Shown: piece by piece, positions 11,731-48,301 of the stretch
Numbering within the stretch: position 1 is the first letter of the stretch
Layout: every line of letters starts with the position of its first letter
NCBI RefSeq assembly: GCF_014466985.1
Contig: NZ_AP022826.1
Span: 434,001 to 498,000, forward strand
Length of the DNA stretch: 64,000 bases
Reading direction: 5' to 3'
Source: Nitrosophilus labii
GTDB lineage: Bacteria; Campylobacterota; Campylobacteria; Campylobacterales; Nitratiruptoraceae
Notes under the pieces: model-generated
Databases searched by the model: none
The model's input: the letters and a program-made list of their open reading frames with translations, nothing else
Told to the model about the DNA's origin: nothing
Program-made: the position numbers and the translations under genes

Positions 11731-12294
11731 ATGAGGTGTATTCTTTGCTCAAGTGTAACTATGAAATATATTTGTCAAAAGTGTCAAAATGCTCTTTTGA
11801 AACCTACAATATCAAAAAGAGAGTTAGTTAAAGATTTTTATGTTATCTCTTTTTATAAATATAAAAATATAGAAACGCTTCTTAAGACAAAACATACTTT
11901 TATTGGAAGCTTTGTTTATGAAATAGTAGCTAAAAACTCTTTTTGTCTGTTTTCTAAAGAGTTTAAGCAAAAGGCTTATGTTTTGCCTGTTGATACTAGA
12001 ATTAAAGACTACTATTCCCATACGGCGATACTTGCAAAAGCGATGAAAAGCAGATATCTTGCACCTTTATACAACTCACTTATAGCACAAAATAGTGTTT
12101 CATATTCGGCAAAAAGCTATCAATATAGAGTGGAAAATCCAAGAAATTTTAACTATATTGGTCCGCAAAGCGTTGATGTAATTATTATTGATGATATTGT
12201 AACTACCGGCCTTACCTTAAAAGAAGCCTATGAAGTAGTAAAGCAAAAAGCAAATCCGCTTTTTGCTCTTACTTTGGCAGATGCTAGAGAATGA
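11731..12294 (+). CDS. comF: ComF-family phosphoribosyltransferase-like protein
   Basis: ComF-type proteins combine an N-terminal zinc finger with a type I phosphoribosyltransferase fold and support natural transformation, probably in ssDNA handling. Here the N-terminus has CxxC pairs (RCILCSS and ICQKCQ), followed about 150 residues on by the PRPP-loop-like IIIDDIVTTGLTLKEA. At 187 residues it is somewhat short. It begins 5 bases after the lipoprotein stop. The last 180 bases of the gene plus 14 bases beyond it are duplicated in inverted orientation at 48108-48301. An IS256-family element begins 14 bases after its stop codon, so any downstream partner has been lost or moved. Confidence 0.88.
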   Translation: MRCILCSSVTMKYICQKCQNALLKPTISKRELVKDFYVISFYKYKNIETLLKTKHTFIGSFVYEIVAKNSFCLFSKEFKQKAYVLPVDTRIKDYYSHTAILAKAMKSRYLAPLYNSLIAQNSVSYSAKSYQYRVENPRNFNYIGPQSVDVIIIDDIVTTGLTLKEAYEVVKQKANPLFALTLADARE

Positions 12295-12308
12295 ACTACT
12301 TTTGTATT
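12115..12308 (+). repeat. 194-bp inverted duplication, copy A (comF 3' end)
   Basis: The sequence 12115-12308 recurs as its reverse complement at 48108-48301. I compared it base by base and found one difference (A at 12157 against G at 48259, which would change Ile to Leu in ComF). Copy A lies inside an intact comF and stops exactly where the IS256-family left end begins (12309). Confidence 0.95.
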
Positions 12309-13699
12309 GATACTGTCAAGTTTTGTTCGCAATTTTACTTTCCAGCAAGTTGTATTTCATTGGATATCAAGCAGCTTTAAGCTGCGCTTCATAGATTTCC
12401 ATCACCTCTTGAAGCTTTTGTGGATGAATATAGCTTCTCTCAATCTCCCAGTCTTCAGTGTACTCCATCAAGTATGTGGTAATGAGTCTAATATAGGACT
12501 CTCTTGATGGAAAAACAGATACTACTTTAGAGCGTCTTCTAATCTCCTTGTTGATTCTTTCTAACACATTTGTCGAACTTATCCTCCTTTTATCAATTTG
12601 CGGGAAGTGATAAAACTGCAAAGAGTCTTCCAATCCATTTTGAAGCACTTGGGTAGCTTCAGGGAATTTTTTGCCATATTCATCGATAATAGCTTGGGCT
12701 ATAAGATAAGCTTCCTTTTTGCTGTTTTGCAGCCAGATTTGTTTGAGTTTTGCTGCAAATTTTTCTTTTGCTTTAGGTGGAACATGAGCTAAAATGTTTC
12801 TCATAAAGTGTACTTTACACCGTTGCCATGATGCGCCAATAAAACTCTCTTTGAAAGCCTTTTTCCCTAAATGTACATCACTGATAAGCAATGCTATTTT
12901 TTGTAATCCTCTTTCTTTGAGTCTCTCAAAGAAATTTCTCCAAGTTTCATAAGACTCATTGATAAATGGCTCTATTGCCAATACCTCTCTTTTGCCTTCT
13001 AGTGTTACACCATAAGCTATCATAATAGCGGTAGATACCACTCTTCCTTCATAGTCTCTCACTTTCTCATACAAAGCATCAACCCTTGCGTTGGGATACT
13101 CTTTTTGCAGTGGTCTGTTTCGAAACTCTTCTACTTGTTCATCTAGCCCTTTGTTGATTTGTGATACCTGTGATGCACTGATATTCTCGATTCCAAGCTC
13201 TTTTGCCAAACGTTCTATCTTTCTTGTTGATATTCCATTGACGTATGCCTCTTTCACCATCGAAATCAGAGCCTGTTCACTTCTTCTCTTTTCGGTGATG
13301 AAAAAGGGAATGTAGCCACCTTTTCTTATCTTTGGAATCATAAGATAAACTGTCCCTAGTCTCGTATCGAACCTTCTTGGTCTATAACCACTGAAATAGC
13401 TTTTTCTCTCACTATTATGCTCACCTTTTTTAGCTCCAACTTTCATCTCGGACTCAATCTTCATCAACTGTTCCATCATCCATTTCATCATTGATAAAAG
13501 TGGATCTTCATCAACTACAAACTGTGTCATTATCTCTTTGAATATTTTTGTTTCATCTATTTTTTGCTATTATTTCTTTTAGATTGGCTTCCTCCTACTT
13601 GCTTTGTTCCTCACTGGGAAGTCTATCCAACTCTTTTGAAGATTTCAAAATCTAAAAAAGAGTCTTCAAGTGAAATTGCGAACTTTAGTGTACACTATC
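12309..13699 (-). mobile_element. Intact IS256-family insertion sequence (about 1.39 kb)
   Basis: The ends were placed by imperfect terminal inverted repeats of about 30 bp. The left end begins GATACTGT and shares GTTCGCAATTT with the right end, which read inward begins GATAGTGT. About 22 of 30 positions match. One full transposase gene lies between them on the minus strand. No 8-9 bp target duplication is seen (left flank TTTGTATT, right flank CATTTAGC), so the flanks have probably been rearranged since insertion. The left flank is comF and the right flank is a metF stump. Confidence 0.85.
12367..13530 (-). CDS. IS256-family (Mutator-type) transposase
   Basis: A 387-residue DDE transposase with the expected family features. 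The first catalytic Asp is in ARVDALYEKVRD, the second in ISDVHLGKKAF, then CKVHFMRN, and the Glu is in SSTNVLERINKEIRRR. The N-terminal helical DNA-binding part (STRKIERLAKELG) is complete. The reading frame is uninterrupted, so the element may still be mobile. It is a different member of the family from the interrupted copy at 49.9-51.3 kb, with clearly different protein sequence and inverted repeats. Confidence 0.95.
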   Translation of the reverse strand: MTQFVVDEDPLLSMMKWMMEQLMKIESEMKVGAKKGEHNSERKSYFSGYRPRRFDTRLGTVYLMIPKIRKGGYIPFFITEKRRSEQALISMVKEAYVNGISTRKIERLAKELGIENISASQVSQINKGLDEQVEEFRNRPLQKEYPNARVDALYEKVRDYEGRVVSTAIMIAYGVTLEGKREVLAIEPFINESYETWRNFFERLKERGLQKIALLISDVHLGKKAFKESFIGASWQRCKVHFMRNILAHVPPKAKEKFAAKLKQIWLQNSKKEAYLIAQAIIDEYGKKFPEATQVLQNGLEDSLQFYHFPQIDKRRISSTNVLERINKEIRRRSKVVSVFPSRESYIRLITTYLMEYTEDWEIERSYIHPQKLQEVMEIYEAQLKAA

Positions 13700-13980
13700 C
13701 ATTTAGCAACGAAAAAGCAAAGTCTGAACTTATTTTAGGTTTTTTTCCTATAACCAGACTTAGAACTGCCCAGTTTCTCCACTCCCACGTTCCGGGTATA
13801 AACGTCCCTAAGGAGTGGATAGATAGACTATATAAAGCCAACAAAATAAGTGAAGAGGAGGAGTTTAAAGTTAGGTTTGAGATGAGTAAAAAACTTTTTA
13901 ACGAAATTTTGGACTTTCATCCTAAAATACACATAATGACGGCAAACAAATTTGATCTGGCAAGAAAAATTCTAGAGTGA
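13700..13980 (+). pseudogene. metF: 3' fragment of a methylenetetrahydrofolate reductase (metF-like) gene
   Basis: The last 93 or so codons of a gene remain: SELILGFFPITRLRTAQFL, HVPGINVPKEWIDRL, and the C-terminal HPKIHIMTANKFDLARKIL. These resemble the C-terminus of the Campylobacterota MetF-type 5,10-methylenetetrahydrofolate reductase (methyl donor supply for methionine). The 5' two thirds of the gene are absent from the whole window. The frame happens to stay open into the IS right end (to 13564), but those upstream codons are IS sequence. Identification is from memory of the family and is probable rather than certain. The 3' end overlaps the convergent lpxH-like gene. Confidence 0.65.
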
Positions 13981-14688
13981 CTTTATAACAATCTTCCCTT
14001 CTTTAAAAACACCATATTTTCCTCCGCAAATAAAAGAGGGAAGGTTAATATATCTTAAATTATCAAAGACTAATTCTACATTTTGATGGAAATGCCCCTC
14101 GATAACCATATCTACATCTTTATAATTTTTTTTATAATTTTTCACTCTCTCTTTTATAATATTTTCAAAATTTTCTATTTTTTTGCATAGATTCTTAGAA
14201 TAGTTATACTCTTGAATCTTTTTTGCTATAAAATCGTTAACTATCTTGTTAAAAAAAGATAAAATTCTCAAAACTGTTTTGTTTTGTAAAACATTTATAT
14301 ATATCTCATATCTTTTCGTAGTCCAAATATCGCCGTGAGATAGTGCAACTTTTATATCTTTATATAAAAAATAACAAGGCTGTTCTTTTCTTTCAAAAAC
14401 TGTTATATTTTTAAAAACACTTTTTAAAGAGAAGTCGTGATTACCTTCAAAATAGTAACTAGGTATTTTACTAGCAATCATATCCATCTTTTTTATAACT
14501 TCTATGTTTTTATCTACGCTGCTTTTAACTTCAGATACCAAAAGATCGAAAATATCTCCCATAAAAAATATTTGCGGAGGATTTAACTCCTCAATCTTTT
14601 GCAGCAATAAAAAAAAGTTATCTTTGTTTTTTTCGTTTACGTGGGAGTCCGCTACAAAAATAGCGCTCTCTTTGATATTACGGAACAT
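13972..14688 (-). CDS. lpxH: LpxH-like UDP-2,3-diacylglucosamine hydrolase (calcineurin-like phosphoesterase)
   Basis: Probably splits UDP-2,3-diacylglucosamine to lipid X and UMP in lipid A synthesis. The metallophosphoesterase ligands are all present in order: ADSH, MGDIFD, EGNHD, LSHGD and EGHFHQ. At 238-240 residues it matches the LpxH family. An ATG at 14688 or a TTG at 14694 may be the start; both overlap the 3' end of argC. Lipid A genes recur nearby (lpxB, gnnB and gnnA from 16.3 kb, and lpxC at the right edge), which supports the assignment. Other phosphoesterases of this fold cannot be fully excluded. Confidence 0.8.
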   Translation of the reverse strand: MFRNIKESAIFVADSHVNEKNKDNFFLLLQKIEELNPPQIFFMGDIFDLLVSEVKSSVDKNIEVIKKMDMIASKIPSYYFEGNHDFSLKSVFKNITVFERKEQPCYFLYKDIKVALSHGDIWTTKRYEIYINVLQNKTVLRILSFFNKIVNDFIAKKIQEYNYSKNLCKKIENFENIIKERVKNYKKNYKDVDMVIEGHFHQNVELVFDNLRYINLPSFICGGKYGVFKEGKIVIKSL

Positions 14689-15685
14689 AGGCAATTTTAG
14701 GAATACCCAAATCTTCTGGAAAAGAAAACATTATATTTGCATTTACTATAGCTTGAGAACTTGCGCCTCTTAAAAGATTGTCGATAGCCGAGGAGATAAA
14801 AAGCGATTTTTGGTTTTTTACAGCAAAAATATCGCAAAAGTTAGTTCCGCTAACTGATTTTACATCTACAGGTTTATCTTTGATTCTAACAAAAATATCA
14901 TCACTATAAAACTCTTTTAAAACTTGATTTGGCTCTATCTCCTCTTTTAACGTAACATAACAGCTAACAAGCATTCCTCTAGTTATTGGAAGAAGATGAG
15001 GTACAAAGTTTATCTCATAATCTTTGCCGGAGCATTCATGTAATTTTTCTTTTATCTCTATAGAGTGTCGGTGTTTTATAGGGTTATATGCAAAAATATT
15101 TTCATTTATGGTAATAAAATGGGTGTTTTGGCTACACTTTTTACCAGCACCGCTTACGCCGCTTTTAGCATCTACAAAAATTGGAGCGTTAGGATCGATA
15201 AAGGGCAAAAAAGGTATCAGCGATAAAAGTGTTGCCGTAGGATAACAGCCGGGATTTGCTACAAGTCGGCTTTTTTCTATTTTCTCTTTATAGATTTCCG
15301 GAAGACCGTATACTGCATCTTTTAAATGCTCTTGATCGATATGAGAAGTATAAAAATTTTCATAATTTTCAAGTTTAAGTCTATAATCCGCAGATAGATC
15401 TACTACCTTAACACCCAAATCCAAAAGCTCTTTTGCAAAACTCATGGAGGCTTTATGAGGAAGAGCTAAAAAAGCAAGATCGCAAAAGTTTGCTATCTCT
15501 TGTGGATCAGCTTTATGTATAGGCATATCTAAAATAGAGTCTAGAGCTGGAAAAACCTTTTTAGTATTCTGGTCTTCACTGCTTCCAAGATAAACCAACT
15601 TAAATTTAGGATGATTAAGAAGTATCTTGATAAGTTCAAGTCCTGTATATCCCGTTGCTCCGACTACCGCACATCTGATATTCAA
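14678..15685 (-). CDS. argC: N-acetyl-gamma-glutamyl-phosphate reductase
   Basis: Third step of arginine synthesis: NADPH-dependent reduction of N-acetylglutamyl phosphate to the semialdehyde. It shows the Rossmann start VVGATGYTGLELIKIL, the catalytic Cys in NPGCYPTAT, and the SGAGKK and HRHSIEI segments. At 335 residues it is of family length. It starts at TTG with a GGAG ribosome-binding site 7 bases before. It lies 9 bases downstream of greA and overlaps the lpxH-like gene by about 11 bases, forming a greA-argC-lpxH unit on the minus strand. Confidence 0.96.
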   Translation of the reverse strand: MNIRCAVVGATGYTGLELIKILLNHPKFKLVYLGSSEDQNTKKVFPALDSILDMPIHKADPQEIANFCDLAFLALPHKASMSFAKELLDLGVKVVDLSADYRLKLENYENFYTSHIDQEHLKDAVYGLPEIYKEKIEKSRLVANPGCYPTATLLSLIPFLPFIDPNAPIFVDAKSGVSGAGKKCSQNTHFITINENIFAYNPIKHRHSIEIKEKLHECSGKDYEINFVPHLLPITRGMLVSCYVTLKEEIEPNQVLKEFYSDDIFVRIKDKPVDVKSVSGTNFCDIFAVKNQKSLFISSAIDNLLRGASSQAIVNANIMFSFPEDLGIPKIAYVP

Positions 15686-15694
15686 AAAAACTCC

Positions 15695-16183
15695 TTATTT
15701 ATCAAACTTAATAGGTTTGTAATATACTTCTAAGATCTCAAAATCTATCTCCCCTTTTGGAAGTTTTACTGTTATCTCATCACCCTCTTCTTTTCCAAGA
15801 AGCTGTCTAGCTAGAGGGGTATTGTAAGATATAAGTCCATGTTCAGGATTGCTTTCTGTAGCTCCGACTATAGTGTACTCTATCTCTTCATCCTCTTCTA
15901 TATCCAAAAGCTTTACGGTTGAGCCGAAGCTCACTTTCTCATGAGGAAGTTTTGAAGGATCAATAACTTGAGCACGGGATAGCAGATCGCTAAGTTCCGC
16001 AAGTCTTGCGTCAATAAATCCCAATCTCTCTTTAGCCGCATGATATTCGGCATTTTCTCTTAGGTCTCCATGCTCTTTCGCTTTTTCAATCTCTACAACT
16101 ACTTTCGGTCTCTCTTCTTTTAAGGCTTCTAGCTCATCTTGTAGTTTTTTATATCCATATTCCGTCATTGGCTCTTTTTGCAC
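15695..16183 (-). CDS. greA: Transcription elongation factor GreA
   Basis: Rescues backtracked RNA polymerase by stimulating transcript cleavage. The N-terminal coiled coil carries the tip acidic residues in EHGDLRENAEYHAAKE, the family signature. The C-terminal FKBP-like domain contains TPLARQLLGKEEGD. At 162 residues it is typical. It starts at GTG with a well-placed GGAG; an internal ATG 5 codons later is a weaker alternative. It is transcribed divergently from lpxB across an 80-base spacer. Confidence 0.97.
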   Translation of the reverse strand: MQKEPMTEYGYKKLQDELEALKEERPKVVVEIEKAKEHGDLRENAEYHAAKERLGFIDARLAELSDLLSRAQVIDPSKLPHEKVSFGSTVKLLDIEEDEEIEYTIVGATESNPEHGLISYNTPLARQLLGKEEGDEITVKLPKGEIDFEILEVYYKPIKFDK

Positions 16184-16237
16184 TTTTTCTCCTTCGTTTA
16201 AAACCTATAATTTTTTATAGTTTCTTAATAATTTTTG

Positions 16238-16243
16238 TATAAT
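16238..16243 (+). promoter_or_regulatory. Candidate -10 box for lpxB-gnnB-gnnA
   Basis: TATAAT in TTTTTGTATAATTATAT lies about 25 bases before lpxB, in the greA-lpxB divergent spacer. Confidence 0.45.
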
Positions 16244-16266
16244 TATATCAACTTTTAGGAGATATG

Positions 16267-17307
16267 ATGAAAATAGTCGTTAGTGCTCTTGAAAAATCTG
16301 CAAATGTTCATCTTAAAGAGGTTTTAAAATATATAGATTGCAAAATTTATGGAATCTTCGATAAAACTTTGGAAGAACCAATTATAGACCTGCAATCTAT
16401 TTCGGTTATGGGTTTTGCGGACGTATTTAAAAAAATTCCTCTTTTTTACGAACTCCAAAACGAGATGGTCTCTTTGGCAAAAGATGCGGACAAAATTTTG
16501 CTTATAGACTCTTCCGGGTTTAATCTACCTTTGGCAAAAAAGATAAAAAAAAGATATCCAAATACCCAGATAATATATTATATATTGCCTCAGGCTTGGG
16601 CTTGGAGAAGAGGAAGGATAAAAGAGCTTGAAAAGTATGTAGACAGGCTTTGCTCCATTTTACCTTTTGAAAAAGAGTACTACTCCAAAAACGCACCGAT
16701 AGAGTATGTAGGTCATCCTCTTTTGGATGAGATAAAGGAGTTTAAAACATCTCTAACCAAGTCAGATTTTATAACTTTTATGCCAGGAAGCAGAAGAGGC
16801 GAGATAAAAAGATTAATGCCGGTTTTCAAAGAGGTTAGAAAAGAGTTAAACAAAGAGGCGCTACTCGTAATACCACCTCACTTCAGTGATAACGATATAA
16901 AAGAGATTTATGGTGATTTAGAAGATTTTACGATAACGAAAGAGCCTCACAAAGCTCTTATGAAATCGGAATTTGCTTTTATCTGTAGCGGTACCGCTAC
17001 TTTGGAGAGTGCTCTTATAGGAACGCCTCTGATTTTAGCTTACATAGCAAAACCTATCGATTATTTTATAGCTAAAACTCTTGTTAATTTGGATTATGTA
17101 GGGTTGGCAAATATATTTATGAACGATCTACTTAACGAGACAATTCATCCGGAATTTATTCAAAATGAGGTATCATCAAAAAATCTATTAGAGGCATACG
17201 AAAATTTTGATAAAAAAGAGTTTTTCAAAAAATCGCTCCTGCTGAGAGATTATCTAAAGCACGGAAGTTCAAAAAGAGTGGCACAAATACTAAAGGAAGA
17301 GTTATGA
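16267..17307 (+). CDS. lpxB: Lipid-A-disaccharide synthase
   Basis: A GT19 glycosyltransferase that joins lipid X to UDP-diacylglucosamine to give the lipid A disaccharide at the inner membrane. Motifs include IDSSGFNLPLAKKIKK, LPQAWAWRRGR, EYVGHPLLDE, FMPGSRRGEIKRLMPV and SGTATLESALIGTP. At 346 residues it is of Campylobacterota length. Of two adjacent ATGs, 16267 is better spaced from the AGGAG site than 16264. The stop overlaps the start of the next gene (ATGA-type junction), tying lipid A disaccharide formation to the gnn genes. Confidence 0.96.
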   Translation: MKIVVSALEKSANVHLKEVLKYIDCKIYGIFDKTLEEPIIDLQSISVMGFADVFKKIPLFYELQNEMVSLAKDADKILLIDSSGFNLPLAKKIKKRYPNTQIIYYILPQAWAWRRGRIKELEKYVDRLCSILPFEKEYYSKNAPIEYVGHPLLDEIKEFKTSLTKSDFITFMPGSRRGEIKRLMPVFKEVRKELNKEALLVIPPHFSDNDIKEIYGDLEDFTITKEPHKALMKSEFAFICSGTATLESALIGTPLILAYIAKPIDYFIAKTLVNLDYVGLANIFMNDLLNETIHPEFIQNEVSSKNLLEAYENFDKKEFFKKSLLLRDYLKHGSSKRVAQILKEEL

Positions 17308-18407
17308 GAGTGGAGTTTATCGACTTAAAAACGCAATACATGGCCTACAAAGAAGAGATAGATAAGACGATAGGTGAGGTTATGCAAAAGGCCGCTTTTA
17401 TCGGAGGGGAAAAGGTCGCTACTTTAGAAAAAGAACTTGCAAATTATACTGGTTCTAAATTTGCAATCAGTTGTAGCAGCGGAACAGACGCACTTTTACT
17501 AGCTTTAATGGCGATAGGGATTAAAGAGGGAGACGAGGTTATAACCACACCCTTTACATTTATAGCAACTGCGGAGGTTATCTCCTTTTTAAAAGCTAAA
17601 CCGGTATTTGTGGATATAGATGAAAAAACATACAATATAGATCCCAAAAAGATAGAAGAGAAGATTACCTCAAAAACAAAAGCGATCATTCCTGTGAGTC
17701 TTTACGGTCAACCAGCGGATATGGAGGAGATCAACCAGATAGCCAAAAACGCTTCAGGGAAAATTTATGTGATAGAGGATGCCTGCCAAAGCTTCGGCGC
17801 TGAATATAAAGGCAAAAAAAGCTGCAACTTAAGCGACATAGGTTGTACTAGCTTCTTTCCTTCAAAACCGCTCGGATGCTATGGTGATGGAGGAGCGGTT
17901 TTTACTAATGATGAAGAGATAGCAAAAAAGATCTTTATACTTAAAAATCACGGACAAAGCAAAAGATACGAGCATGAGGTGATTGGTCTAAATGCAAGAT
18001 TAGACGCGATTCAAGCCGCAGTACTTTTAGTGAAAATGAAACATTTTGATGATGAAGTAAAAAAGAGAATAGAGCTGGGACAAAGATATACGCAACATCT
18101 AAAAGATTTTGTAATAACACCTATCATAAAAGAGGATAGAACCTCCGTTTATGCGCAATATTCCATAAGGGTCCCTGATAGAAGAAAGGAGATCGTAAAC
18201 AAATTAAAAACAACCGGAGTTCCTACGGCTATTCACTATCCAAAACCTCTTCATCTGCAAAAAGCATTTGAGTATCTAGGATATAAAGAGGGAGATTTTC
18301 CTGTAGCTGAAAAGGTTTCAAAAGAGATTTTGAGTCTTCCTATGAGCCCGTTTTTGAGTATAGAAGATCAAGATTACATCATAAAAACATTATCAAAAGC
18401 ATTTTAG
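17304..18407 (+). CDS. gnnB: GnnB-type sugar aminotransferase (DegT/DnrJ/EryC1 family)
   Basis: A PLP-dependent aminotransferase of the DegT family. With GnnA it probably converts UDP-GlcNAc to the 3-amino analogue, so that lipid A carries amide-linked rather than ester-linked acyl chains at position 3. Family motifs are clear: SCSSGTDALLLALMA, IEDACQSFGAEY, FFPSKPLGCYGDGGA with the PLP lysine, and GLNARLDAIQAA. At 367 residues it is full length. The specific assignment rests on its position between lpxB and a Gfo/Idh oxidoreductase. Campylobacter jejuni uses GnnA and GnnB in this way. Another UDP-sugar 3-aminotransferase is the alternative. Confidence 0.78.
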   Translation: MRVEFIDLKTQYMAYKEEIDKTIGEVMQKAAFIGGEKVATLEKELANYTGSKFAISCSSGTDALLLALMAIGIKEGDEVITTPFTFIATAEVISFLKAKPVFVDIDEKTYNIDPKKIEEKITSKTKAIIPVSLYGQPADMEEINQIAKNASGKIYVIEDACQSFGAEYKGKKSCNLSDIGCTSFFPSKPLGCYGDGGAVFTNDEEIAKKIFILKNHGQSKRYEHEVIGLNARLDAIQAAVLLVKMKHFDDEVKKRIELGQRYTQHLKDFVITPIIKEDRTSVYAQYSIRVPDRRKEIVNKLKTTGVPTAIHYPKPLHLQKAFEYLGYKEGDFPVAEKVSKEILSLPMSPFLSIEDQDYIIKTLSKAF

Positions 18408-18415
18408 GAAAAGAG

Positions 18416-19312
18416 ATGATAAATATTGCGATAATCGGTCTCGGTTCTATGGGGAAAAACCATTACAGAGTATTGAAAAACATCGGCGAAGTAAACGTGA
18501 TCGCACTTTGTGACGTAGTTGAATATAGCTCTTTTAAAGAGCCTTTTTATAACGATATTGATGAAATGTTTAAGAATGAAAAGATTGACGCAGCTATTAT
18601 AGCGGTTCCAACTTTTTTACATAAAGATGTAGCACTCAAAGTAGCCTCTTACGGTGCGGATCTTTTTATTGAAAAACCTGCGGCTTCAAAAATCGAAGAT
18701 GCTGAGACTATATTGGATTTTGTAGAAAAAAGAGGGTTGAAAAGTTGCGTAGGTCACGTGGAGAGATTTAATCCCGCAGTTTTAAATCTAAAAGAAGAAC
18801 TCAAAAGTAAAACTATTTACACCATAGAGATAACTAGAGTGGGACCTTTTCCTCCTAGAATTAGCGATGTAGGAGTTTTAACAGATTTGGCCGTACACGA
18901 TATAGATCTGATAAGATATATAACTTCAAAAGATATTTTGGATAAATCTATCTTCAAATCTCAAAAGATTCATAACCATTATGAAGATAACGCGGTTTTG
19001 AGCTTTTTACTTGAAGATGACATAATTGCAAGTATAACAACTAACTGGCTGACCCCTTTTAAAAGAAGAAAAATTGAAGTTGCTTGTGCGAAAGTATATT
19101 TCGAAGCGGATCTCATAGCTCAAACGCTGCAAGAGTTTTCAGATTATCAGACAAACAATTCATACAGAGTAAGAGACTTACACATAAAAAAAGATGAGCC
19201 TCTTTTAAAAGAGTTGGAGGCTTTTGTCGAGTATATAAAAAGCGGAGATAGAGGGAATCTAGCCTCTATAGAAGATAGTATAGAGACTTTAAAGGTTGTG
19301 TTGCCTAAATGA
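18416..19312 (+). CDS. gnnA: GnnA-type NAD-dependent UDP-sugar oxidoreductase (Gfo/Idh/MocA family)
   Basis: Probably oxidises the 3-OH of UDP-GlcNAc so that GnnB can aminate it. It has the N-terminal NAD site IAIIGLGSMGKNH, EKPAA (the family Lys motif), HVERFNPAV, and DLAVHDIDLIRYI with the active-site His. At 298 residues it is slightly shorter than the 320-350 usual in Gfo/Idh proteins. It starts 8 bases after gnnB with a GGAAAAGAG site, and its stop overlaps the start of the transporter gene. An EKPAA-type enzyme from another sugar pathway is possible, but lpxB next door favours lipid A. Confidence 0.75.
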   Translation: MINIAIIGLGSMGKNHYRVLKNIGEVNVIALCDVVEYSSFKEPFYNDIDEMFKNEKIDAAIIAVPTFLHKDVALKVASYGADLFIEKPAASKIEDAETILDFVEKRGLKSCVGHVERFNPAVLNLKEELKSKTIYTIEITRVGPFPPRISDVGVLTDLAVHDIDLIRYITSKDILDKSIFKSQKIHNHYEDNAVLSFLLEDDIIASITTNWLTPFKRRKIEVACAKVYFEADLIAQTLQEFSDYQTNNSYRVRDLHIKKDEPLLKELEAFVEYIKSGDRGNLASIEDSIETLKVVLPK

Positions 19313-20226: not shown

Positions 20227-20259
20227 AATTCTTTGGTATAATTTGCAACGAAATTATTT

Positions 20260-20406
20260 GTCATTAAGTCATTGAGTCATTGGTAATATGCATTGGAGTG
20301 AATGTGTGGGTGTGAGTGTGTGTTAATTTACTACTCAACCACTTAACCAAAAATCCGAATTCCCAATTCTTAATTCTTAATTCTTAATACCCAATATCCA
20401 ATTTCA
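20260..20406. repeat. Intergenic phased 7-bp and 8-bp degenerate tandem repeats
   Basis: Three octamers in a row (GTCATTAA, GTCATTGA, GTCATTGG; 20260-20283) are followed by mixed GT-rich sequence. Then come seven head-to-tail heptamers at 20358-20406 with consensus AATTCYY (AATTCCC, AATTCTT x3, AATACCC, AATATCC, AATTTCA). The tract fills the 194-base spacer before surE and runs into its ribosome-binding site. It contains a TATAAT at 20237-20242 on the transporter side. The same style of repeat appears around 34.0-34.5 kb. Confidence 0.8.
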
Positions 20407-20420
20407 AAAAAAGGAGTTTT

Positions 20421-21206: not shown

Positions 21207-21207
21207 G

Positions 21208-22146: not shown

Positions 22147-22388
22147 CATTTTACCTTTACTTTAAGATTAAAGAAGTATAACATTTTTTAAAAAATTACA
22201 AATTAATTTTACTATCTAGTTATAATAATAAATTATAGTTCAAGACTATTTTTAATGAATATTTTAAAATTGTTCTATAAAAAATCCAAATAAATCTCAA
22301 TATTAAGTAGTAAATATGCAATTATTTTAGATAAGCTTTTATAAGAAGCGCTATCTTCTGCTAAGGATATTTTTAAAAAGGATGACAA

Positions 22389-24400: not shown

Positions 24401-24401
24401 T

Positions 24402-24572: not shown

Positions 24573-24646
24573 AATTTTTGTATAACATATAAGTATAGTT
24601 CTTTAATATAATCTTTATTTAAAAACTTTTCTTTACAATACTTATT

Positions 24647-25069: not shown

Positions 25070-25109
25070 CTAAGTAAAGCGTTAAAATATGAGATTTGAA
25101 GATAGCTGC

Positions 25110-36708: not shown

Positions 36709-36731
36709 AACTCCTCCTTTATTAAATGGTT

Positions 36732-39133: not shown

Positions 39134-39144
39134 CTTTTATCCTT

Positions 39145-39165
39145 AAAGCGGCAAAAAGCCGCTTT
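39145..39165 (-). terminator. Hairpin terminator or attenuator after actP
   Basis: AAAGCGGC and GCCGCTTT form a perfect 8-bp stem around a 5-base loop, 4 bases beyond the actP stop. It lies between actP and the DUF294 gene, so it probably lowers expression of the distal half of the acetate operon (intrinsic terminator without a strong T-run). Confidence 0.6.
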
Positions 39166-39169
39166 AAAA

Positions 39170-40813: not shown

Positions 40814-41124
40814 AGTTCATCCTTTATGGAATCATGAAGTTCTTTTGTAATAACATCAAACTCTTTATTCGCTTTGTTTACGTATATACCCGTGAGCGCA
40901 AACGCAAACACGATTATTCCGATACCTACAGGAATACCGACGGTGGTCACCCCGTCTCCAAGAGGTTTTCCTAAAAGCGATGGCTCAAAGGCGATAGTTA
41001 AAATGAACGCGTAATAGCCGATCAATAAAATAATCGCCATTGTCCACGAAAACTTCTCTCTTTTTTCTATAAGTTCCCAAAGTCTTGGATTGTTTTTAAG
41101 CTTTTGTAATATTTCGGTTTTCAT
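40810..41124 (-). CDS. yjcH: DUF485 (YjcH-like) inner-membrane protein
   Basis: A 104-residue protein with two membrane spans (about residues 27-45 and 62-81) and charged ends. DUF485 proteins are encoded immediately before ActP-type symporters and are probably accessory subunits. AAGGAG lies ahead of the ATG, 9 bases after the oprD stop, and the stop overlaps the actP start. Confidence 0.92.
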
Positions 41125-41133
41125 ATCTACTCC

Positions 41134-42462
41134 TTAGAAGTTATAGTTGGCGATAAGTCTATATTCGTTCCAGCCTAGGTCGTTGCCGCTGGAGTTTTCG
41201 TAGAAGTTTCTAGGGAAGTTGCCTCTAAATCTTAGTTGTAGGTTTTTGACGTTTTTAGGATAGTAGATAAAGTCAAAACCTGCTTCCGTTGCTGTCCACG
41301 AGTGATTAGGAGAGTATGCGTTATTACTACCTACGTCAAATGAGGTATAATAGAGGGTAGTTTTAAGATTTATACCAAAAGAGTTCCATTTATAAGTACC
41401 GGCTACTTTCCATGCGTCCGTATCGGCAAAGAACTGATGTCTAGTAACCATACCTTGAGTGAAAGCAGGCATACCTCCCCAAGGGGTTATAATACCTCCA
41501 TTTACTGCTGCATTAGTATTAGAGTCTGTTGTTGAGTAAGCTCCGTAAACGGTTAAGTTGTTATAACTACCGCCTACTTTAAAGCCTATATAACTTGAGT
41601 CTACCTTTCCGGCATAACTGTCGCCTACATCACTTTCATTAATATATTGTAAAGCTGCAAAAGGTTTTATATCTTCACTTAATAGAGAGTTCCATTTAAA
41701 ATCGGCTTGAAGGTAGATTGCGTTTAGTATATCATAAGCATAGTAATCCCAAGCTTGTAAAGTAAGGTTTTTAATACCTTTGTAGATTATAGCGCCCGCA
41801 GTAACCCCGTCTGTTTCCGTTCCTATGGCGTACCATCCCATATCTTCGAATCTTCCTATACTGGCATTTGGGTTTGCACCGTAACCTGCCGTTAGGGCTA
41901 AAGCGGTAGAGCCTCTGTATTGGTTAAAGAATGTTCCGGGAGCAACTTTTGTAACATGAGCCGCAACCAAAGTTGTATCCGGAAGGTCTGTATTTGTTAA
42001 GACATAAGCTTCAAAAAGAGTTGGTATCATTCTTGCATCATCAGCTGCTGCAAGAGGGGTATTGAGTTTTTGGCGTCCTGCTTTTATTGAAGTATTGCCA
42101 TTTTTGTACTGAATATATGCTTCACCTACAAAAGAGTAGCTATCACCATTGTCACCAAGTATTGATGTATGGACTTTAGCCGGGTCTGAGCTATTAAGAC
42201 CGAAATCATTGTCACTATAGAGACCTATTCCGGCACTAAAGCCTTTGTAATCTGCAGTTTGGTAGTGTAAATCTACTCCAACTGCAAAAGCACTGTAGTC
42301 AGTTTTAGCCGATTCAAGGGCTCCTTGCCAGTTTCTATCGATATAAAAAGCTCTTACGTGACCATTTAAAGTTCCGTTTTTAAAAGCTTCGTCTAAACTG
42401 TCCGCCGCAAAACCAGATGTTAGCAAAGATGCTGCCATTAAGGATAAGGCGATTTTCTTCAT
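41134..42462 (-). CDS. OprD-family outer membrane porin
   Basis: A 442-residue outer-membrane beta-barrel. A signal peptide with cleavage expected after TSGFA-A is followed by DSLDEAFKNGTLNGHVRAFY, the typical OprD-family start, then many amphipathic strands ending in YRLIANYNF (terminal Phe). KAGRQKLNTPLAAADDARM matches the family region lining the pore. It heads the acetate operon, so it probably brings acetate or other small carboxylates across the outer membrane; the substrate is inferred from context. It has AAGGAG before the ATG and a structured promoter region upstream. Confidence 0.9.
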   Translation of the reverse strand: MKKIALSLMAASLLTSGFAADSLDEAFKNGTLNGHVRAFYIDRNWQGALESAKTDYSAFAVGVDLHYQTADYKGFSAGIGLYSDNDFGLNSSDPAKVHTSILGDNGDSYSFVGEAYIQYKNGNTSIKAGRQKLNTPLAAADDARMIPTLFEAYVLTNTDLPDTTLVAAHVTKVAPGTFFNQYRGSTALALTAGYGANPNASIGRFEDMGWYAIGTETDGVTAGAIIYKGIKNLTLQAWDYYAYDILNAIYLQADFKWNSLLSEDIKPFAALQYINESDVGDSYAGKVDSSYIGFKVGGSYNNLTVYGAYSTTDSNTNAAVNGGIITPWGGMPAFTQGMVTRHQFFADTDAWKVAGTYKWNSFGINLKTTLYYTSFDVGSNNAYSPNHSWTATEAGFDFIYYPKNVKNLQLRFRGNFPRNFYENSSGNDLGWNEYRLIANYNF

Positions 42463-42487
42463 ATCTACTCCTTAAAATTTGATTTTA

Positions 42488-42532
42488 CTATTATTGTAAA
42501 TGTCTTTAGTAGCATAAACGTAGCAATAATAG
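42488..42532 (-). promoter_or_regulatory. Candidate response-regulator operator upstream of the acetate operon
   Basis: In the 122-base spacer between the response regulator and oprD, the hexamer GTAGCA occurs twice with an 11-base period (42509-42514, 42520-42525). This is the spacing typical of OmpR/PhoB-family tandem sites. It is enclosed by a 9-bp inverted repeat CTATTATTG / CAATAATAG (42488-42496, 42524-42532). Binding is inferred from pattern only. Confidence 0.45.
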
Positions 42533-42584
42533 TTTAAAAGGTTTAAGATTAAAAAAAATATGTAAAGTGTGTAGAGTTGAAGCG

Positions 42585-43235
42585 CTATTTTTCTATTTTG
42601 TATCCGAGTCCTCTGATGTTTATAATAAAATCTTCTTTAAGAGTTTTTTTTAATCTACTTATTTCTGCTCTAATTGTAGGGTTATCAACAAACTCATCAC
42701 GATAGACATATTCTCTAAACAAATCAAAATCCACGACCAAACCTCTGTTTTTTGCAAGTAGATCAATGATCTGGAGTTGCCTTTTTGTAAGCTCTACTGG
42801 GGATTGTTCAAAATAGAGAGTCTTTTTTTCTATGGAGTAACTGTAGTTTTTGCTTAAAACTATATGTTTTTTGTTTTCTATCTCTTTTGAGATTTTTTCG
42901 ATCCTAATCTCAAGCTCTTTTAGATGAAAAGGTTTTTTTATATAATCTTTACAGCCAAGTTCAAAGGCTTTTGTTATATCTTCAATATCCGTTAAAGCAC
43001 TAATAAAGATTGTGGGGATGTATTTATGCTTTTTTTTAAGAGTCTCAAGAAGTTTAAAGCCGTCTAAATCTGGAACGTTTATATCTAAAATCAGCAAGTC
43101 AAAACTCTCTTTTTCTACTATCTCAAGTCCCTCTTTTCCGTTAAAACAGATTTTTACTTCATGGCCAATTTTTTGTAGGTATCTATCTATAGATTTGCAC
43201 AAAATTATCTCATCTTCAAGCAAAAATATTTTCAT
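42585..43235 (-). CDS. OmpR/PhoB-family response regulator (acetate cluster)
   Basis: A 216-residue two-domain regulator. The receiver domain has the phospho-acceptor Asp51 in LLILDINVPDLDG, Thr/Ser in FISALTD and Lys in DYIKKPFH. The C-terminal winged helix is of OmpR type (ELTKRQLQIIDLLAKNRGLV ... IRGLGYKIEK). It overlaps the kinase gene upstream by 20 bases and directly precedes oprD. It probably controls the acetate operon, replacing the LuxR-type CrbR of Pseudomonas and Vibrio. Confidence 0.93.
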   Translation of the reverse strand: MKIFLLEDEIILCKSIDRYLQKIGHEVKICFNGKEGLEIVEKESFDLLILDINVPDLDGFKLLETLKKKHKYIPTIFISALTDIEDITKAFELGCKDYIKKPFHLKELEIRIEKISKEIENKKHIVLSKNYSYSIEKKTLYFEQSPVELTKRQLQIIDLLAKNRGLVVDFDLFREYVYRDEFVDNPTIRAEISRLKKTLKEDFIINIRGLGYKIEK

Positions 43236-44841
43236 CTCTCTCTTTCAGTATATATTTAAAAATATTGTAACCGTTTTTATATGTTAGTTCGATCTTAAAG
43301 CCGTATTTATCGCAAATCTCTTTTACTAAAGCTAGACCCAACCCAAAACCGCCTTTAGCGTCGTCTTCTTTGTAAAACTGCTCAAAAATGTTTTTTGTCT
43401 CTTGTATCTTTTTTGATTTTGTAGCTATCTCAAATATTATATCTTCATCTTTATAAAGTTTTATGTAAATAGTGCTTTTTGGATAGCTGTACTTAATAGC
43501 GTTTGACAAGTTGTTATCAATTATTCTTTGAAGCTCTATGGAGTTTATAGACAGCTTTAGATTTTTTTCGATTGACGCTTCTATTTGTAGCATATTGCCT
43601 TTTGCCACCTCTTTAAAGAAATCTATCCTATTTTTTAAAAAGGTAGATATATCAACCGGCTCTTTTTTATATTCGACTCTATCTTTTTTAAGCATATAAG
43701 CTAGATCGTTATAGATATTGTGGATGATTTTTATGCCCGATTCTATATTTGTGATCTCTTGATTTTTTATATTTTCCATTTTTAAAAGATCAATATTTGC
43801 AAGTATTATACTAAGAGGCGTATTTATTTCGTGAATAGCCGTTTTTAAAAATTTATCTTGTGCTTTTAGGAGTGATTCGGTTAACTCTTTTGAGCGTTTG
43901 AGTTCTAAGTTTTGGATATGTAGTTTTTTCGTTTTTTGTAAAACCTTTTCTTCTAACGTTTTGTTTAGTTCTTGAAGTTTTCTTGTTCGATCTTTAATAA
44001 TTTTTATCATTTTGTTTGTATATTTGGCAATCTCTTTAAACTCTTCAAAAAGAATATCTTCGGTATATATATATATATTTTTGTTTGCCGCTTCATTAAA
44101 CCTATCTCTGATCTTTATCAAAGATTTTTCTATTAAAGTAGAAAAGTATCTCATCGTAGTAATTGTTATCAATAAAAGAATAAATGATAGGGTGATAATA
44201 TTGATTATATATTTAATCATTTTATCTTTATAGGCTTGTTCTTTGTTTTTGATAAATTTTTCTATCTCGTCTAAATATACTCCGGTTCCTACCATCCAGC
44301 CAAAGGGTTCGTAGGATTTGGCGTAAGAGATTTTTGGTGCTAAAACGTTAGCTATAGGTTTGTTCCAGACATACTCTACATATCCCCCTTCTGGTTTTCT
44401 TGAAACTTCTATAAGCTCTTTTATAACTTTTTTGCCGTTTGGATCTTCAAAATCAATCAGATTCTTTCCTTTGTTTTGTTTTAGTATCGGATCGGCTACG
44501 TTAATACCCTCGAAGGTATAGATAAAAATATATCCCGTTCCGTCTCTTTCGTTTCTCATATACTCAATAGCATCTATTATCTCTTGTTTTACTTCCGAAA
44601 GTGGTTTGTCTCTGTTTTTGGAGTGTTTATAAGCGATAAACTTTAAAGCTCTTAGAGTCTCTTTTTTTATAAGATGCTTTTGTTTTTTGATATACTCTTT
44701 TTTAAATCTAGCTATCTCTTTTTGAAACTCTTGATACTCTTCAAAAACTATTAAAGCCGTAAAAAGTGACACAAACAAGATGAAAAGAGAAAGCATAAAG
44801 TATTTTAGTTTAACGAAACTAATACTTTTAAAAGGATTCAA
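43216..44841 (-). CDS. Cache-domain sensor histidine kinase (acetate cluster)
   Basis: A 541-residue membrane sensor. The first membrane span is at about residues 14-33, a periplasmic single Cache domain follows (RNERDGTGYIFIYTFEGINV, YAKSYEPFGWMVGTGVYLDE), and the second span is at about 208-230. After a coiled linker come the HisKA domain with the phospho-acceptor His in TAIHEINTPLS and an ATPase domain with N-box DNNLSNAIKYS and KGGFGLGLALVKEICDKYG. The usual DxGxG (G1) box is not visible; FEIATKSKKIQETKNIFEQF occupies its place. Cache domains of this kind bind small organic acids, so acetate or a relative is a plausible ligand (inference). Confidence 0.9.
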   Translation of the reverse strand: MNPFKSISFVKLKYFMLSLFILFVSLFTALIVFEEYQEFQKEIARFKKEYIKKQKHLIKKETLRALKFIAYKHSKNRDKPLSEVKQEIIDAIEYMRNERDGTGYIFIYTFEGINVADPILKQNKGKNLIDFEDPNGKKVIKELIEVSRKPEGGYVEYVWNKPIANVLAPKISYAKSYEPFGWMVGTGVYLDEIEKFIKNKEQAYKDKMIKYIINIITLSFILLLITITTMRYFSTLIEKSLIKIRDRFNEAANKNIYIYTEDILFEEFKEIAKYTNKMIKIIKDRTRKLQELNKTLEEKVLQKTKKLHIQNLELKRSKELTESLLKAQDKFLKTAIHEINTPLSIILANIDLLKMENIKNQEITNIESGIKIIHNIYNDLAYMLKKDRVEYKKEPVDISTFLKNRIDFFKEVAKGNMLQIEASIEKNLKLSINSIELQRIIDNNLSNAIKYSYPKSTIYIKLYKDEDIIFEIATKSKKIQETKNIFEQFYKEDDAKGGFGLGLALVKEICDKYGFKIELTYKNGYNIFKYILKERDENIFA

Positions 44842-45001
44842 AACACTCCTTTTTAAAATATGGAAACGATAATAGCTTAAAATTTACTAAACTTTTTCTT
44901 TATAATAATATCATAAAAGTAAAAGTTGTGATTATTATCTAACCTCTTATTTACATTTATTGACTTTTTGCAATAAGGGAATTTTTATGGCTTTTGTAAA
45001 C

Positions 45002-46306
45002 TGTCCCATTTGTCAAGACAACTTTTTTAGCATTCATCTTTCAGCTTTTCAAGCTGCTTTTTCTTTTGATGTCTGATAGACATTCATCGGTCTGTTATAG
45101 TTTAAAGATGAATGCATTCGATTGAAATTGTAAAATTTGATGTAGTTTCGTATGCCTGTTCTGAGTTCCTTAACGTTGCTATATTCCCTGAGATAGATCT
45201 CTTCATATTTGAGTGTTCTAAAGAAGCGCTCTATTGCAATGTTATCGATACTTCTTCCTTTAGAGTTCATAGAGATTGTGATGCCATACTTTTTTAAAAG
45301 TTTGGTATGATTATCACTTGTATATTGACTTCCTTAATCTGAATTGAAGATTTGGGGTACTCCATGTATATCGATAGCATCTTGAAGTGTCTGTGTCACT
45401 AATGATACATCTATAGTGTGTTGGAAAGCCTCCACGATAGCAAGGCTTTAGAGTGCCAATCGATAATGGCGCATAGATACATAAAGCCACCCTTGACTGG
45501 GATATAGGTAATATACCACTCCACACTCTATTTGGTCTATCCACAACTACTTGACCTTTATCGTTTTAAAGGCTTTCAAAGAGTAAGGATAGATTGTGTG
45601 CTCTTTGGCTTTGGTGCTGGTTTGTTTCTTTCTTTTAGGATAAATTGCAGCAATTCCTAAAAGTTGCATCAATCTATGTACTTTATTATGACCTATATGC
45701 CAACCTTCCTCTTTGAGCCTAGCGTGGATTCTACGATAGCCATAGGTTGCAACATCGGTATATATCTCATCGATACGGCGCATAATCTTCAAATCGTATT
45801 CGCTTATTCCTTTTGGTTTATAGTAAAGTGTGGAGCGATTGAGACCCAAAAGTTCACATTGTCTCGTCAAAGAGATGGTTTTAAGCTTGGACTCGACGAG
45901 ACTTTTCTTACTTGATAAGTCCAAGCTTTTTAGTTTTCCCACTGCCCAGTCTCTTTCTATTGTGGTCTTTCCTAAAGTTTTCGCTAAAACTTCATTCTCA
46001 ATTTCTAGCTCTTTTATCTTTTCTCTATACTCTTTTGTAGCCTCTGCGATATCGAATGCCAAAGAAGCGTTTTCTAAAAACTTCTTCTTCCATTGGTTGA
46101 GTGTTTGAACGCTGATACCATATTTACTTGCTATCTTTGCAGCAGGCTCCTCATCTTTTCATAGCTCCAATACTACTTTGGTCTTAAACTCTGCGCTATA
46201 GCTTTTTTTCTTTTTGCTCATCTTTAGCCCCTTTCTTTTTCCCTCTTATCATTTTAGCTAATTTGAAGCTCCTTATTAGATTTTGTTGTCTAAAATTTTA
46301 GGGGCA
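45002..46306 (-). mobile_element. Decayed IS3-family insertion sequence (about 1.3 kb)
   Basis: The ends are set by inverted repeats. The left end TGTCCCATTTGTC-AAGACAAC and the right end, read inward, TGCCCCTAAAATTTTAGACAAC agree in the TG..CCC start and AGACAAC. There is no target duplication (left AAC, right TTA). On the left, five codons of an unidentified start (MAFVN from 44987, with upstream AAGGGA) run straight into the element. On the right a GGDEF gene is truncated. The transposase has several lesions, so the element is dead. Confidence 0.85.
45049..46221 (-). pseudogene. Broken IS3-family transposase (orfA-orfB)
   Basis: OrfA starts at 46221 (SYSAEFKTKVVLEL) and meets a TGA after about 20 codons, then continues as AAKIASKYGISVQTLNQWKKK. 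It runs on in frame through the coiled region into the first part of OrfB (YKPKGISEYDLKIMRRIDEI, TYGYRRIHARLKEEG, to 45547). Frameshifts near 45540 and 45330 break the integrase core. The C-terminal catalytic piece IAIERFFRTLKYEEIYL and NRMHSSLNYNRP ends at 45049. It is of IS150-like type and distinct from the intact element at 28.7 kb. Confidence 0.88.
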
Positions 46307-46586
46307 TTATAAAATCCGGGCTGATATGTTATCAAGAACAGGAGGTAATGAATTTACTATCATTGCATCCAATACAGATTTATCTCATGCAAAAAATTTG
46401 ATTATAAAACTAAAAAATAAGTTGGAAAGAGATGGCATTAAAGATATTCATGAAAAAATCTGCTGCAGCTTCGGAATAACGGAGTATAAAAAACGTGAAA
46501 GTAAAGAGGAGTTCTTTAAAAGAGCCAATAAAACTCTTTATATCTCGAAAAAAAGGAACAAAACAGAATATCTTTTTTATAAATAA
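46307..46586 (+). pseudogene. 3' fragment of a GGDEF-domain (diguanylate cyclase-like) gene
   Basis: From the IS boundary the frame reads YKIRADMLSRTGGNEFTIIA, the heart of a GGDEF domain with the variant signature GGNEF. It continues through CCSFGITEYKKRESKEEFFK and the KTLYISKKRNKTEYLFY ending. The domain's N-terminal half and any sensor region are missing. An internal ATG at 46326 gives an open frame, but it would lack half the fold, so it is almost certainly non-functional. Confidence 0.85.
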
Positions 46587-47678
46587 TTATTCTAAGTTCT
46601 CTTTTTCAACCAATATTTTATCTAGGATTTCAAAAACTTTTTTACTACCTTCCTCCATCTCTTCTAAAGCCGCAATTAATTCATCAAATGAATAATCTTT
46701 ACCCGTAAATATCAAATCAAAAATATTCTTAGTACCCTTATGAACTATCTCATGAGGAGTCTCTAATAAATCAAAAGATGGTACGGTTGAAAAAAACTCT
46801 TTTCCCTCTCCTTCATAATACCACTTTCCCAATCTACACTCGTGAAAATCCACATAATCAAAAACCTGTTCATTTTTTATTACGGAAAGATAGGTATTTA
46901 CTTTCCATATAATATGATCTAATTTAGCCAAACTCATAAAAATTCTATTTGATATTTTAATAATTTTATCAAATGTTTTATTTACACTAATATTTATTTC
47001 TGAAAGCTCTCTTCTAAAATTTTCAATCTTTAAATCTATTTTTTCTATCTTTTCGCTCACTTCAGTAGCGATTACATCAACGTCGTTCATCTCCTCTTTC
47101 ATAGTCTTTATAATTTTGTCAACTTCTCTAACCGCCTTTTGCGTTCTATCAGCAAGATTTCTCACCTCTTCTGCAACTACTGAAAATCCTTTTCCAAACT
47201 CACCGGCTCTTGCAGCCTCTATAGCCGCGTTAAGAGCTAGAAGATTGGTTTGTTCGGAGATCTCTTTAATCAATGAAAGTATTCTATCTACCTCTTCGGT
47301 TCTTTCAAAAAGTTCTTGTACGCTATTTTTAGATTTATATGCTGTTGAATTAAGCACGTTTGTATCGTTCATTATAGAGGTTATGCCCTCTACTATCTCG
47401 TTAAATTTGTTATTTAAATCGGTAGCGGAATGGATGGTGGTTTTGGCTTCATTAACAGATTCTGCAATATTTGATTGAATATCTACAAGACCAAATTTTA
47501 GATTTTCGTTTTCCAATTTACACAACTCTTTAAAATCCTTTTTAGTATCTATATTTTTCAATTCTTTACTCGTTAGACTACTTTTTAGCTCTTCGTTCTC
47601 ATTTTTTAGTCTGTTATTCTCATCTTTAAGTTTTTCAATAACTTTTTCGAGCTCTTTTTCTCTTTTAGAAAAAAACAT
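46587..47678 (-). CDS. Cytosolic chemoreceptor with C-terminal CZB zinc-binding domain (TlpD-like)
   Basis: A 363-residue soluble methyl-accepting protein without membrane spans. An N-terminal coiled coil (about 1-60) is followed by a signalling hairpin whose tip reads [21 protein letters not shown], then [20 protein letters not shown]. The C-terminal CZB domain has the zinc ligands His in [12 protein letters not shown], Cys in [15 protein letters not shown] and His in TPHEIVHKG. In Helicobacter pylori the CZB receptor TlpD senses oxidants through the Cys-Zn site. A similar redox or energy-taxis role is likely here. A -10-like TATAAT lies upstream near 47720. It stands alone, next to a small gene of unknown function. 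Confidence 0.93.
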
Positions 47679-47787
47679 ATTTAATCCTTAATTTTCCAAA
47701 TTATAGAAAATTATAACAAATTTACTTTAAAATTTTTAAAAATATTTTGTTATACTATGAAAAATATTAACAAAGGAGTTATGTATT

Positions 47788-48120
47788 ATGAAAATATCAA
47801 ACGAAGGAATATTAACTCAACTTGGATACAATATAGACGAAAAATCAACGAAACAGTTAGAAAATATTGAAAAAAATACACCAGGCTTTGAAAATATCAA
47901 AAAACATATTGTGGCTTTAAACGATCATTTAAAACATCTATCTTCATATGTTGCCATGTCAAATTCTAATCCTTATTTTAAAATTAAAATCGATACTGAA
48001 AATAAAGAGTTTATAGAAGAAGCTAAAGATATCATAAACAGATGGGCTCAAAAATATAACGTAAATCTTCAAAAAGTTCAAAATAAAGAGACATACTACA
48101 TATTGGGAATACAAAAGTAG
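47788..48120 (+). CDS. Small protein of unknown function next to the CZB receptor
   Basis: A 110-residue soluble protein, mostly helical in appearance with an HxxH-like patch (ALNDHLKHLSSYVAM) in the middle. I recognise no family. An AAAGGAG site and a TATACT box make expression likely, and it diverges from the CZB receptor across about 110 bases. The last four codons and stop lie within copy B of the 194-bp duplication. The comF 3' end begins just beyond, one base from this stop, on the opposite strand. This suggests it was the native convergent neighbour of comF. Confidence 0.65.
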   Translation: MKISNEGILTQLGYNIDEKSTKQLENIEKNTPGFENIKKHIVALNDHLKHLSSYVAMSNSNPYFKIKIDTENKEFIEEAKDIINRWAQKYNVNLQKVQNKETYYILGIQK

Positions 48121-48301
48121 TTCATTCTCTAGCATCTGCCAAAGTAAGAGCAAAAAGCGGATTTGCTTTTTGCTTTACTACTTCATAGGCTTCTTTTAAG
48201 GTAAGGCCGGTAGTTACAATATCATCAATAATAATTACATCAACGCTTTGCGGACCAAGATAGTTAAAATTTCTTGGATTTTCCACTCTATATTGATAGC
48301 T
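48108..48301 (-). repeat. 194-bp inverted duplication, copy B (comF 3' fragment)
   Basis: The reverse complement of 12115-12308, with one base different. It encodes the last 59 or so codons of comF without any start. It is bounded on the right by the left end of the IS1634-family element (48302). On the left its first 13 bases form the end of the small gene at 47788-48120. Confidence 0.95.

What the first reader, a model, noticed from the sequence alone, without database searches (positions are those of the whole stretch)
12115..48301. Inverted 194-bp duplication of the comF 3' end marks a ~36-kb rearrangement with an IS at each breakpoint
12115-12308 and 48108-48301 are reverse complements with one mismatch (12157 vs 48259). 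Copy A ends exactly at the IS256 left end (12309); copy B ends exactly at the IS1634 left end (48302). Copy A keeps the native 5' side of comF. Copy B keeps what looks like its native 3' neighbour: the stop of the gene at 47788-48120 falls inside the repeat, one base from the comF stop and convergent with it. One reading is an inversion of the intervening 36 kb with staggered breaks. The other is a larger inverted duplication trimmed by IS-adjacent deletions. The single difference argues against a simple assembly echo but does not exclude a strain mixture.
Basis: partly seen in the sequence, partly recalled or inferred. Interest (0 to 1): 0.72.

Follow-up and report, generated by a model that had tools for sequence, protein, structure and literature searches.

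The report
Long IS1634 target duplication split by inversions
The two mirror-image 194-base copies at the comF gene are the two halves of an unusually long target duplication made when a jumping gene of the IS1634 family inserted, later pulled 36 kb apart when copies of that element recombined and flipped first about 34 kb and then half the chromosome; this is a known kind of event, preserved in an unusually readable form.

Summary
In detail: 12115-12308 and 48108-48301 are inverted copies with one mismatch, bounded by IS256 and IS1634 ends, and are the only two copies in the genome. The inversion reading holds, but 'staggered breaks' is not the best cause. The 194 bp are best explained as the long target-site duplication (TSD) of an IS1634-family insertion. 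Two more split duplications exist: 523 bp (metF/phosphoesterase; window 13700-14222 and C1:1511711-1512233) and 267 bp (batD-like/tyrA; window 51436-51702 and C1:1514019-1515634, interrupted by an IS256). The three junctions are an exact left/right permutation of three IS1634 insertions, as expected from two successive inversions between oppositely oriented IS1634 copies (34.4 kb; then 1.03 Mb, symmetric about ori-ter). The ancestral neighbours are adjacent and convergent in relatives. An unrearranged IS1634 relative in the same genome has 195-bp perfect direct repeats; relatives elsewhere have 28-682 bp (one inferred 938 bp). At the comF junction an IS256 copy without its own TSD sits where IS1634 is predicted, so 194 and 523 bp are lower bounds. 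Long, variable TSDs are already reported for IS1634 and IS1549; their mechanism is open.

The parts
11731..12294 (+). comF-like gene, R-side neighbour of insertion site S1
   Evidence: TIGR00201 comF hit, E 1e-8, below its cut-off; orthologue in G003 88% identical
12115..12308 (+). S1 TSD, copy A (at least 194 bp; 3' end possibly trimmed by IS256a)
   Evidence: 193/194 identical to 48301-48108; only two copies in genome
12309..13699 (-). IS256-family element (IS256a), no TSD here; occupies the place where the model predicts an IS1634 copy
   Evidence: NF033543 334 bits for its transposase; other copies have 8-bp TSDs, this one none
13700..14222 (+). S2 TSD copy (at least 523 bp): metF 3' end plus phosphoesterase C-terminal part
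   Evidence: 520/523 identical to C1:1511711-1512233, which abuts an IS1634 right end
13972..14694 (-). phosphoesterase (LpxH-like) gene, intact; ancestral convergent neighbour of metF
   Evidence: adjacent to metF in G003 and G001
13700..48107 (.). segment B (34.4 kb), inverted relative to the inferred ancestral order
   Evidence: inferred from junction permutation and gene order of relatives
47788..48120 (+). 110-residue gene, L-side neighbour of S1, ancestrally convergent with comF
   Evidence: G003 and G001 gene order
48108..48301 (-). S1 TSD, copy B
48302..51435 (+). IS1634-family element (1785 bp without insert) with ends CCTGACTTTCGCG / CCTGACTTTCTCG, interrupted by IS256b; transposase frameshifted
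   Evidence: second copy C1:1512234-1514018 differs at 1 of 1639 bases in the main aligned piece; PF01609
49941..51281 (-). second IS256-family element (IS256b) inserted inside IS1634
   Evidence: PF00872; flanked by about 8 bp of duplicated IS1634 sequence
51436..51702 (-). S3 TSD copy (267 bp): tyrA 3' end and batD-like gene 3' end
   Evidence: matches C1:1514019-1514243 plus C1:1515585-1515634, interrupted there by another IS256b
51457..52284 (-). tyrA (prephenate dehydrogenase), R-side neighbour of S3
   Evidence: NF006307 442 bits; convergent with batD-like gene in G001 and G002

Best explanation
Three copies of an IS1634-family element inserted at three tight convergent gene junctions: comF/110-residue gene (S1), metF/phosphoesterase (S2) and batD-like/tyrA (S3). 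Each insertion duplicated hundreds of bases of target (at least 194, at least 523, and 267 bp), so both neighbouring genes stayed intact. The copies alternated in orientation round the chromosome. Homologous recombination between S1 and S2 inverted 34.4 kb; recombination between the resulting copy and S3 inverted 1.03 Mb about the ori-ter axis. Each inversion exchanged the flanks, so the TSD halves now lie at different junctions, the S1 pair in inverted orientation. Later an IS256 element replaced IS1634 at the comF junction, probably by IS256xIS256 recombination or adjacent deletion, and other IS256 copies inserted into IS1634 and into one TSD copy. Shown: the duplications, their boundaries, the flank permutation, the ancestral adjacencies, and long direct repeats around undisturbed relatives. 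Inferred: order of events, homologous recombination as agent, and the IS256 replacement.
For: (1) Three split duplications, not one, involving IS1634 ends. (2) Each junction joins one L-side and one R-side flank: comF(R)/pho(L), 110-gene(L)-[IS1634 L-R]-tyrA(R), metF(R)-[IS1634 R-L]-batD(L); exactly the result of two inversions between alternating copies. (3) Empty sites: S1 aligns to G003 898/898 without gap, S2 1626 bp at 94%, S3 to G001 across the site; outer flanks are collinear on both sides; no IS1634 match in the congeners G001 and G002. (4) Undisturbed IS1634 relatives have direct repeats at their ends: 195 bp in this genome at C1:1559966/1561945, 382 and 198 bp in G321, 682 bp (1 mismatch) on an Aliarcobacter plasmid, 406 and 33 bp Persicobacter, 610 bp (1 mismatch) M. 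riyadhense, 58 bp Actinomyces oris, 28 bp Rhodococcus. (5) Literature: IS1634 and IS1549 make long, variable DRs of 8-514 bp (PMC2266710). (6) dnaA is at C1:121; the large inversion's ends lie 485 and 478 kb from the origin, and GC skew switches between 1.01 and 1.04 Mb.
Against: No IS1634 remnant remains at the comF junction; its former presence is inferred. S1 and S2 TSD lengths are therefore lower bounds and their IS256a-side edges are not proven TSD ends. One relative (G372) has defined ends but no long repeat, and several alpha-, beta- and actinobacterial copies show only short or no repeats. Both remaining IS1634 copies share a frameshift, so activity is not demonstrated. No reads were available.
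Confidence: 0.93

Rival explanations
1. Inversion by staggered double-strand breaks with fill-in, which duplicates both breakpoint regions in inverted orientation; the IS elements came later.
For: Gives inverted duplications at the two ends of an inverted segment.
Against: Needs three separate fill-ins, with IS1634 ends exactly at the edges of the duplications; an unrearranged IS1634-type copy in the same genome already has 195-bp direct repeats.
Confidence: 0.03
2. A larger inverted duplication of the comF end, trimmed by IS-adjacent deletions.
For: IS256a lies at one edge and has no TSD; adjacent deletions are a known activity of IS elements.
Against: Outer flanks are two halves of one ancestral locus in G003, not two copies of a larger block; the other two duplications show the same pattern.
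Confidence: 0.01
3. Assembly artefact or strain mixture.
For: Repeats and IS copies are where assemblies go wrong; no reads were available.
Against: Two-contig genome with clean GC-skew halves; TSD copies carry 1, 3 and 1 differences; IS256 insertions sit in only one copy; same anatomy in independent genomes.
Confidence: 0.03

Closest known systems
IS1634 of Mycoplasma mycoides subsp. mycoides SC (Vilei 1999, as cited in PMC2266710)
   Same: Transposase family, element size range, long variable-length direct repeats
   Different: Here in Campylobacterota; the TSD halves are separated onto different junctions by inversions, so they read as inverted or distant repeats
IS1549 of Mycobacterium smegmatis (Plikaytis 1998, as cited in PMC2266710)
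   Same: Long direct repeats on insertion; same family
   Different: Host; here TSDs of 610 and 682 bp were seen and one of about 938 bp inferred, longer than the 514 bp quoted
Inversions flanked by IS1634 or IS1296 in M. mycoides SC PG1, and the ICE-ICE inversion with exchanged direct repeats in M. mycoides capri 95010 (PMC3053259)
   Same: Recombination between inverted element copies inverts the DNA between them and exchanges the flanking direct repeats
   Different: Here three element copies and two successive inversions, with repeats long enough to be seen without knowing the element

Membership tests
IS1634 family | Transposase of the family model NF033559 above cut-off 100 | tested here: met
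   Relatives P0006 349.5 bits and P0005 347.6 bits; the window element itself is frameshifted, its C-terminal half is 67% identical to P0005 and hits PF01609
IS1634 family | Length 1500-2000 bp, terminal inverted repeats starting with C (PMC2266710) | tested here: met
   1785 bp, CCTGACTTTCGCG / CCTGACTTTCTCG
IS1634 family | DDE catalytic motif in an intact transposase | tested here: inconclusive
   Intact relatives hit the DDE domain PF01609; both window-type copies share a one-base frameshift; catalytic residues not mapped one by one
IS1634/IS1549-type long TSD | Direct repeats of tens to hundreds of bp abutting both ends, variable between copies | tested here: met
   Nine undisturbed relatives with 28-682 bp; at S1-S3 the halves are separated but pair up
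IS256 family (element at 12309-13699) | Family transposase NF033543 above cut-off | tested here: met
   334 bits against 150
IS256 family (element at 12309-13699) | 8-9 bp TSD at this site | tested here: not met
   TTTGTATT against CATTTAGC; other copies L004, L006 and L011 have 8-bp TSDs; read as secondary recombination, not as non-membership
Inversion by recombination between IS copies | Exchange of L and R flanks between inverted copies | tested here: met
   J1-J3 permutation

The most novel reading that the evidence does not exclude
IS1634-type elements with long TSDs are found preferentially at tight convergent gene junctions because duplicating both 3' ends makes the insertion harmless: five of six Campylobacterota chromosomal sites with both TSD edges examined (S1, S2, S3 and both G321 copies; the sixth lies in another IS) have a TSD holding both stop codons of a convergent pair -9 to +12 bp apart. 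Either target choice or survivorship could cause this. Strand transfer with cuts up to several hundred bases, perhaps 0.9 kb, apart implies a joining mechanism outside the ordinary DDE scheme.
Probability: 0.3. Interest if true: 0.6.

Novelty: new member of a known kind. Interest (0 to 1): 0.42.

Why it matters
It explains a striking repeat without a new process, and shows that long TSDs act as durable tags that let the order of IS-driven inversions be read from one genome. The family's way of making duplications of 28 to at least 682 bp had no mechanistic model in the review consulted (PMC2266710), and the intact copies found here (for example in G321) are practical material to study it. It also warns that inverted or distant repeats of a few hundred bp next to IS1634 copies should not be taken as staggered breaks or segmental duplication.

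Tried and rejected
Pairing the flanks of the TSD-less IS256a copy with other IS256a copies found no partner, so its exact history is open. A viral-contig scan for the transposase found none. The genome-contig scan gave only two relatives, without usable flanks on both sides. The original IS1634 and IS1549 papers are not held; their numbers are cited from PMC2266710. A programmed-frameshift reading of the IS1634 transposase was considered; relatives have one intact frame, so a one-base loss shared through recombination is simpler.

Full report
Observation. The repeat is real: 12115-12308 and 48301-48108 match at 193 of 194 bases, are the only such pair in the window and the only two copies in the genome. 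Boundaries are as stated: IS256a starts at 12309 and IS1634 at 48302.

The repeat is one of three. Searching the genome with the two IS elements and the sequence beyond IS256a showed a second IS1634 copy at C1:1512234-1514018 and an intact metF beside it. Comparing that region (L037) with the window gave two further split duplications: 523 bp (window 13700-14222 and C1:1511711-1512233; 3 differences) and 267 bp (window 51436-51702 and C1:1514019-1515634, the latter interrupted by an IS256b with an 8-bp TSD). The IS1634 element is 1785 bp with ends CCTGACTTTCGCG and CCTGACTTTCTCG; the window copy is interrupted by IS256b and resumes to 51435.

Junction logic. Calling the two ends of IS1634 L and R, the junctions are: J1 comF-194-IS256a-523-phosphoesterase; J2 110-gene-194-[L IS1634 R]-267-tyrA; J3 metF-523-[R IS1634 L]-267-batD-like. 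If IS1634 had inserted at three ancestral sites with TSDs, each site would have one L-side and one R-side flank: S1 (L 110-gene, R comF), S2 (L phosphoesterase, R metF), S3 (L batD, R tyrA). The observed junctions are a permutation in which every junction still has one L and one R flank. Read round the circle, S1, S2 and S3 alternate in orientation; inversion between S1 and S2 (34.4 kb) and then between the new S2 junction and S3 (1.03 Mb) yields J1, J2 and J3 exactly. J1 should hold IS1634; it holds IS256a, which has no TSD, unlike copies L004, L006 and L011. IS256a is therefore inferred to have replaced it, and 194 and 523 bp are minimum TSD lengths.

Ancestral order. In congeners comF and the 110-residue gene are convergent neighbours (G003, G001), as are metF and the phosphoesterase (G003, G001) and tyrA and the batD-like gene (G001, G002). 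Joining the two flanks reproduces the empty sites: S1 aligns with G003 over 898 of 898 bases without a gap (88%), S2 over 1626 bp (94%), S3 with G001 across the site. Flanks further out are collinear on both sides. The second inversion's ends lie 485 and 478 kb from the origin (dnaA at C1:121) and GC skew changes sign between 1.01 and 1.04 Mb, so it is almost symmetric about ori-ter, the kind of inversion that bacterial chromosomes usually tolerate (general knowledge; data).

The duplication is made by transposition. Undisturbed IS1634-type copies are flanked by direct repeats abutting the terminal inverted repeats: 195 bp (this genome, C1:1559966-1560160 and 1561945-1562139, perfect), 382 and 198 bp (G321, perfect), 682 bp (Aliarcobacter cryaerophilus pCNAC48, 1 mismatch), 406 and 33 bp (Persicobacter), 610 bp (M. 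riyadhense, 1 mismatch), 58 bp (Actinomyces oris), 28 bp (Rhodococcus PD04). In G099 the first copy is cut by the contig end after 83 bp, but its offset implies about 938 bp. G372 and several alpha-, beta- and actinobacterial copies show short or no repeats. Family membership of the relatives is by NF033559, 349.5 and 347.6 bits against a cut-off of 100. The literature reports long variable repeats of 8-514 bp for IS1634 and IS1549 and no mechanism (PMC2266710); IS1634-flanked inversions are reported in M. mycoides (PMC3053259).

Gene context. At S1, S2, S3 and both G321 copies the TSD contains both stop codons of a convergent pair (spacing -9 to +12 bp), so both genes remain intact. That is a pattern worth testing, not a shown target preference: insertions that break genes may simply have been lost.

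Age. TSD copies differ at 5 of about 984 bases while the two IS1634 copies differ at 1 of 1639 in the main aligned piece (Fisher p 0.02 with 1785 taken as the element length), which fits homogenisation of the IS copies by recombination; this is weak evidence.

Verdict. Observation confirmed; inversion confirmed and extended; cause reassigned to a known property of IS1634-family transposition plus recombination between IS copies.

Noticed in passing
window 49941-51281: The IS256b transposase carries a GC-rich in-frame stretch (about 39 bp near 50435-50475, peptide RPSEATTPQAKPRT) where the flanking sequence reads like an ordinary IS256 motif; exact in six places in the genome, apparently all copies of this element.
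   Followed up: partly
window 48302-51435 and C1:1512234-1514018: Both IS1634 copies share the same one-base frameshift in the transposase, although a 67%-identical relative at C1:1560 kb has an intact frame.
   Followed up: partly
L072 1-83 and 1870-2807 (G099): Geometry implies a TSD of about 938 bp, longer than any quoted for the family in the review consulted; only 83 bp are directly seen because the contig ends there.
   Followed up: partly
window 44997-46309 and 28660-29890: An IS3-like element has near-identical copies at C1:1498705-1500017 and 1521969-1523283; the stretch 28660-29890 recurs at C1:1523315-1524544. The GGDEF-like ORF 46326-46586 beside the IS3-like element looks like a 3' fragment.
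   Followed up: no
L105 (C1:300001-310000): GC 0.256 and GC skew -0.25 against the positive trend of that replichore; possibly an island or an inverted block.
   Followed up: no
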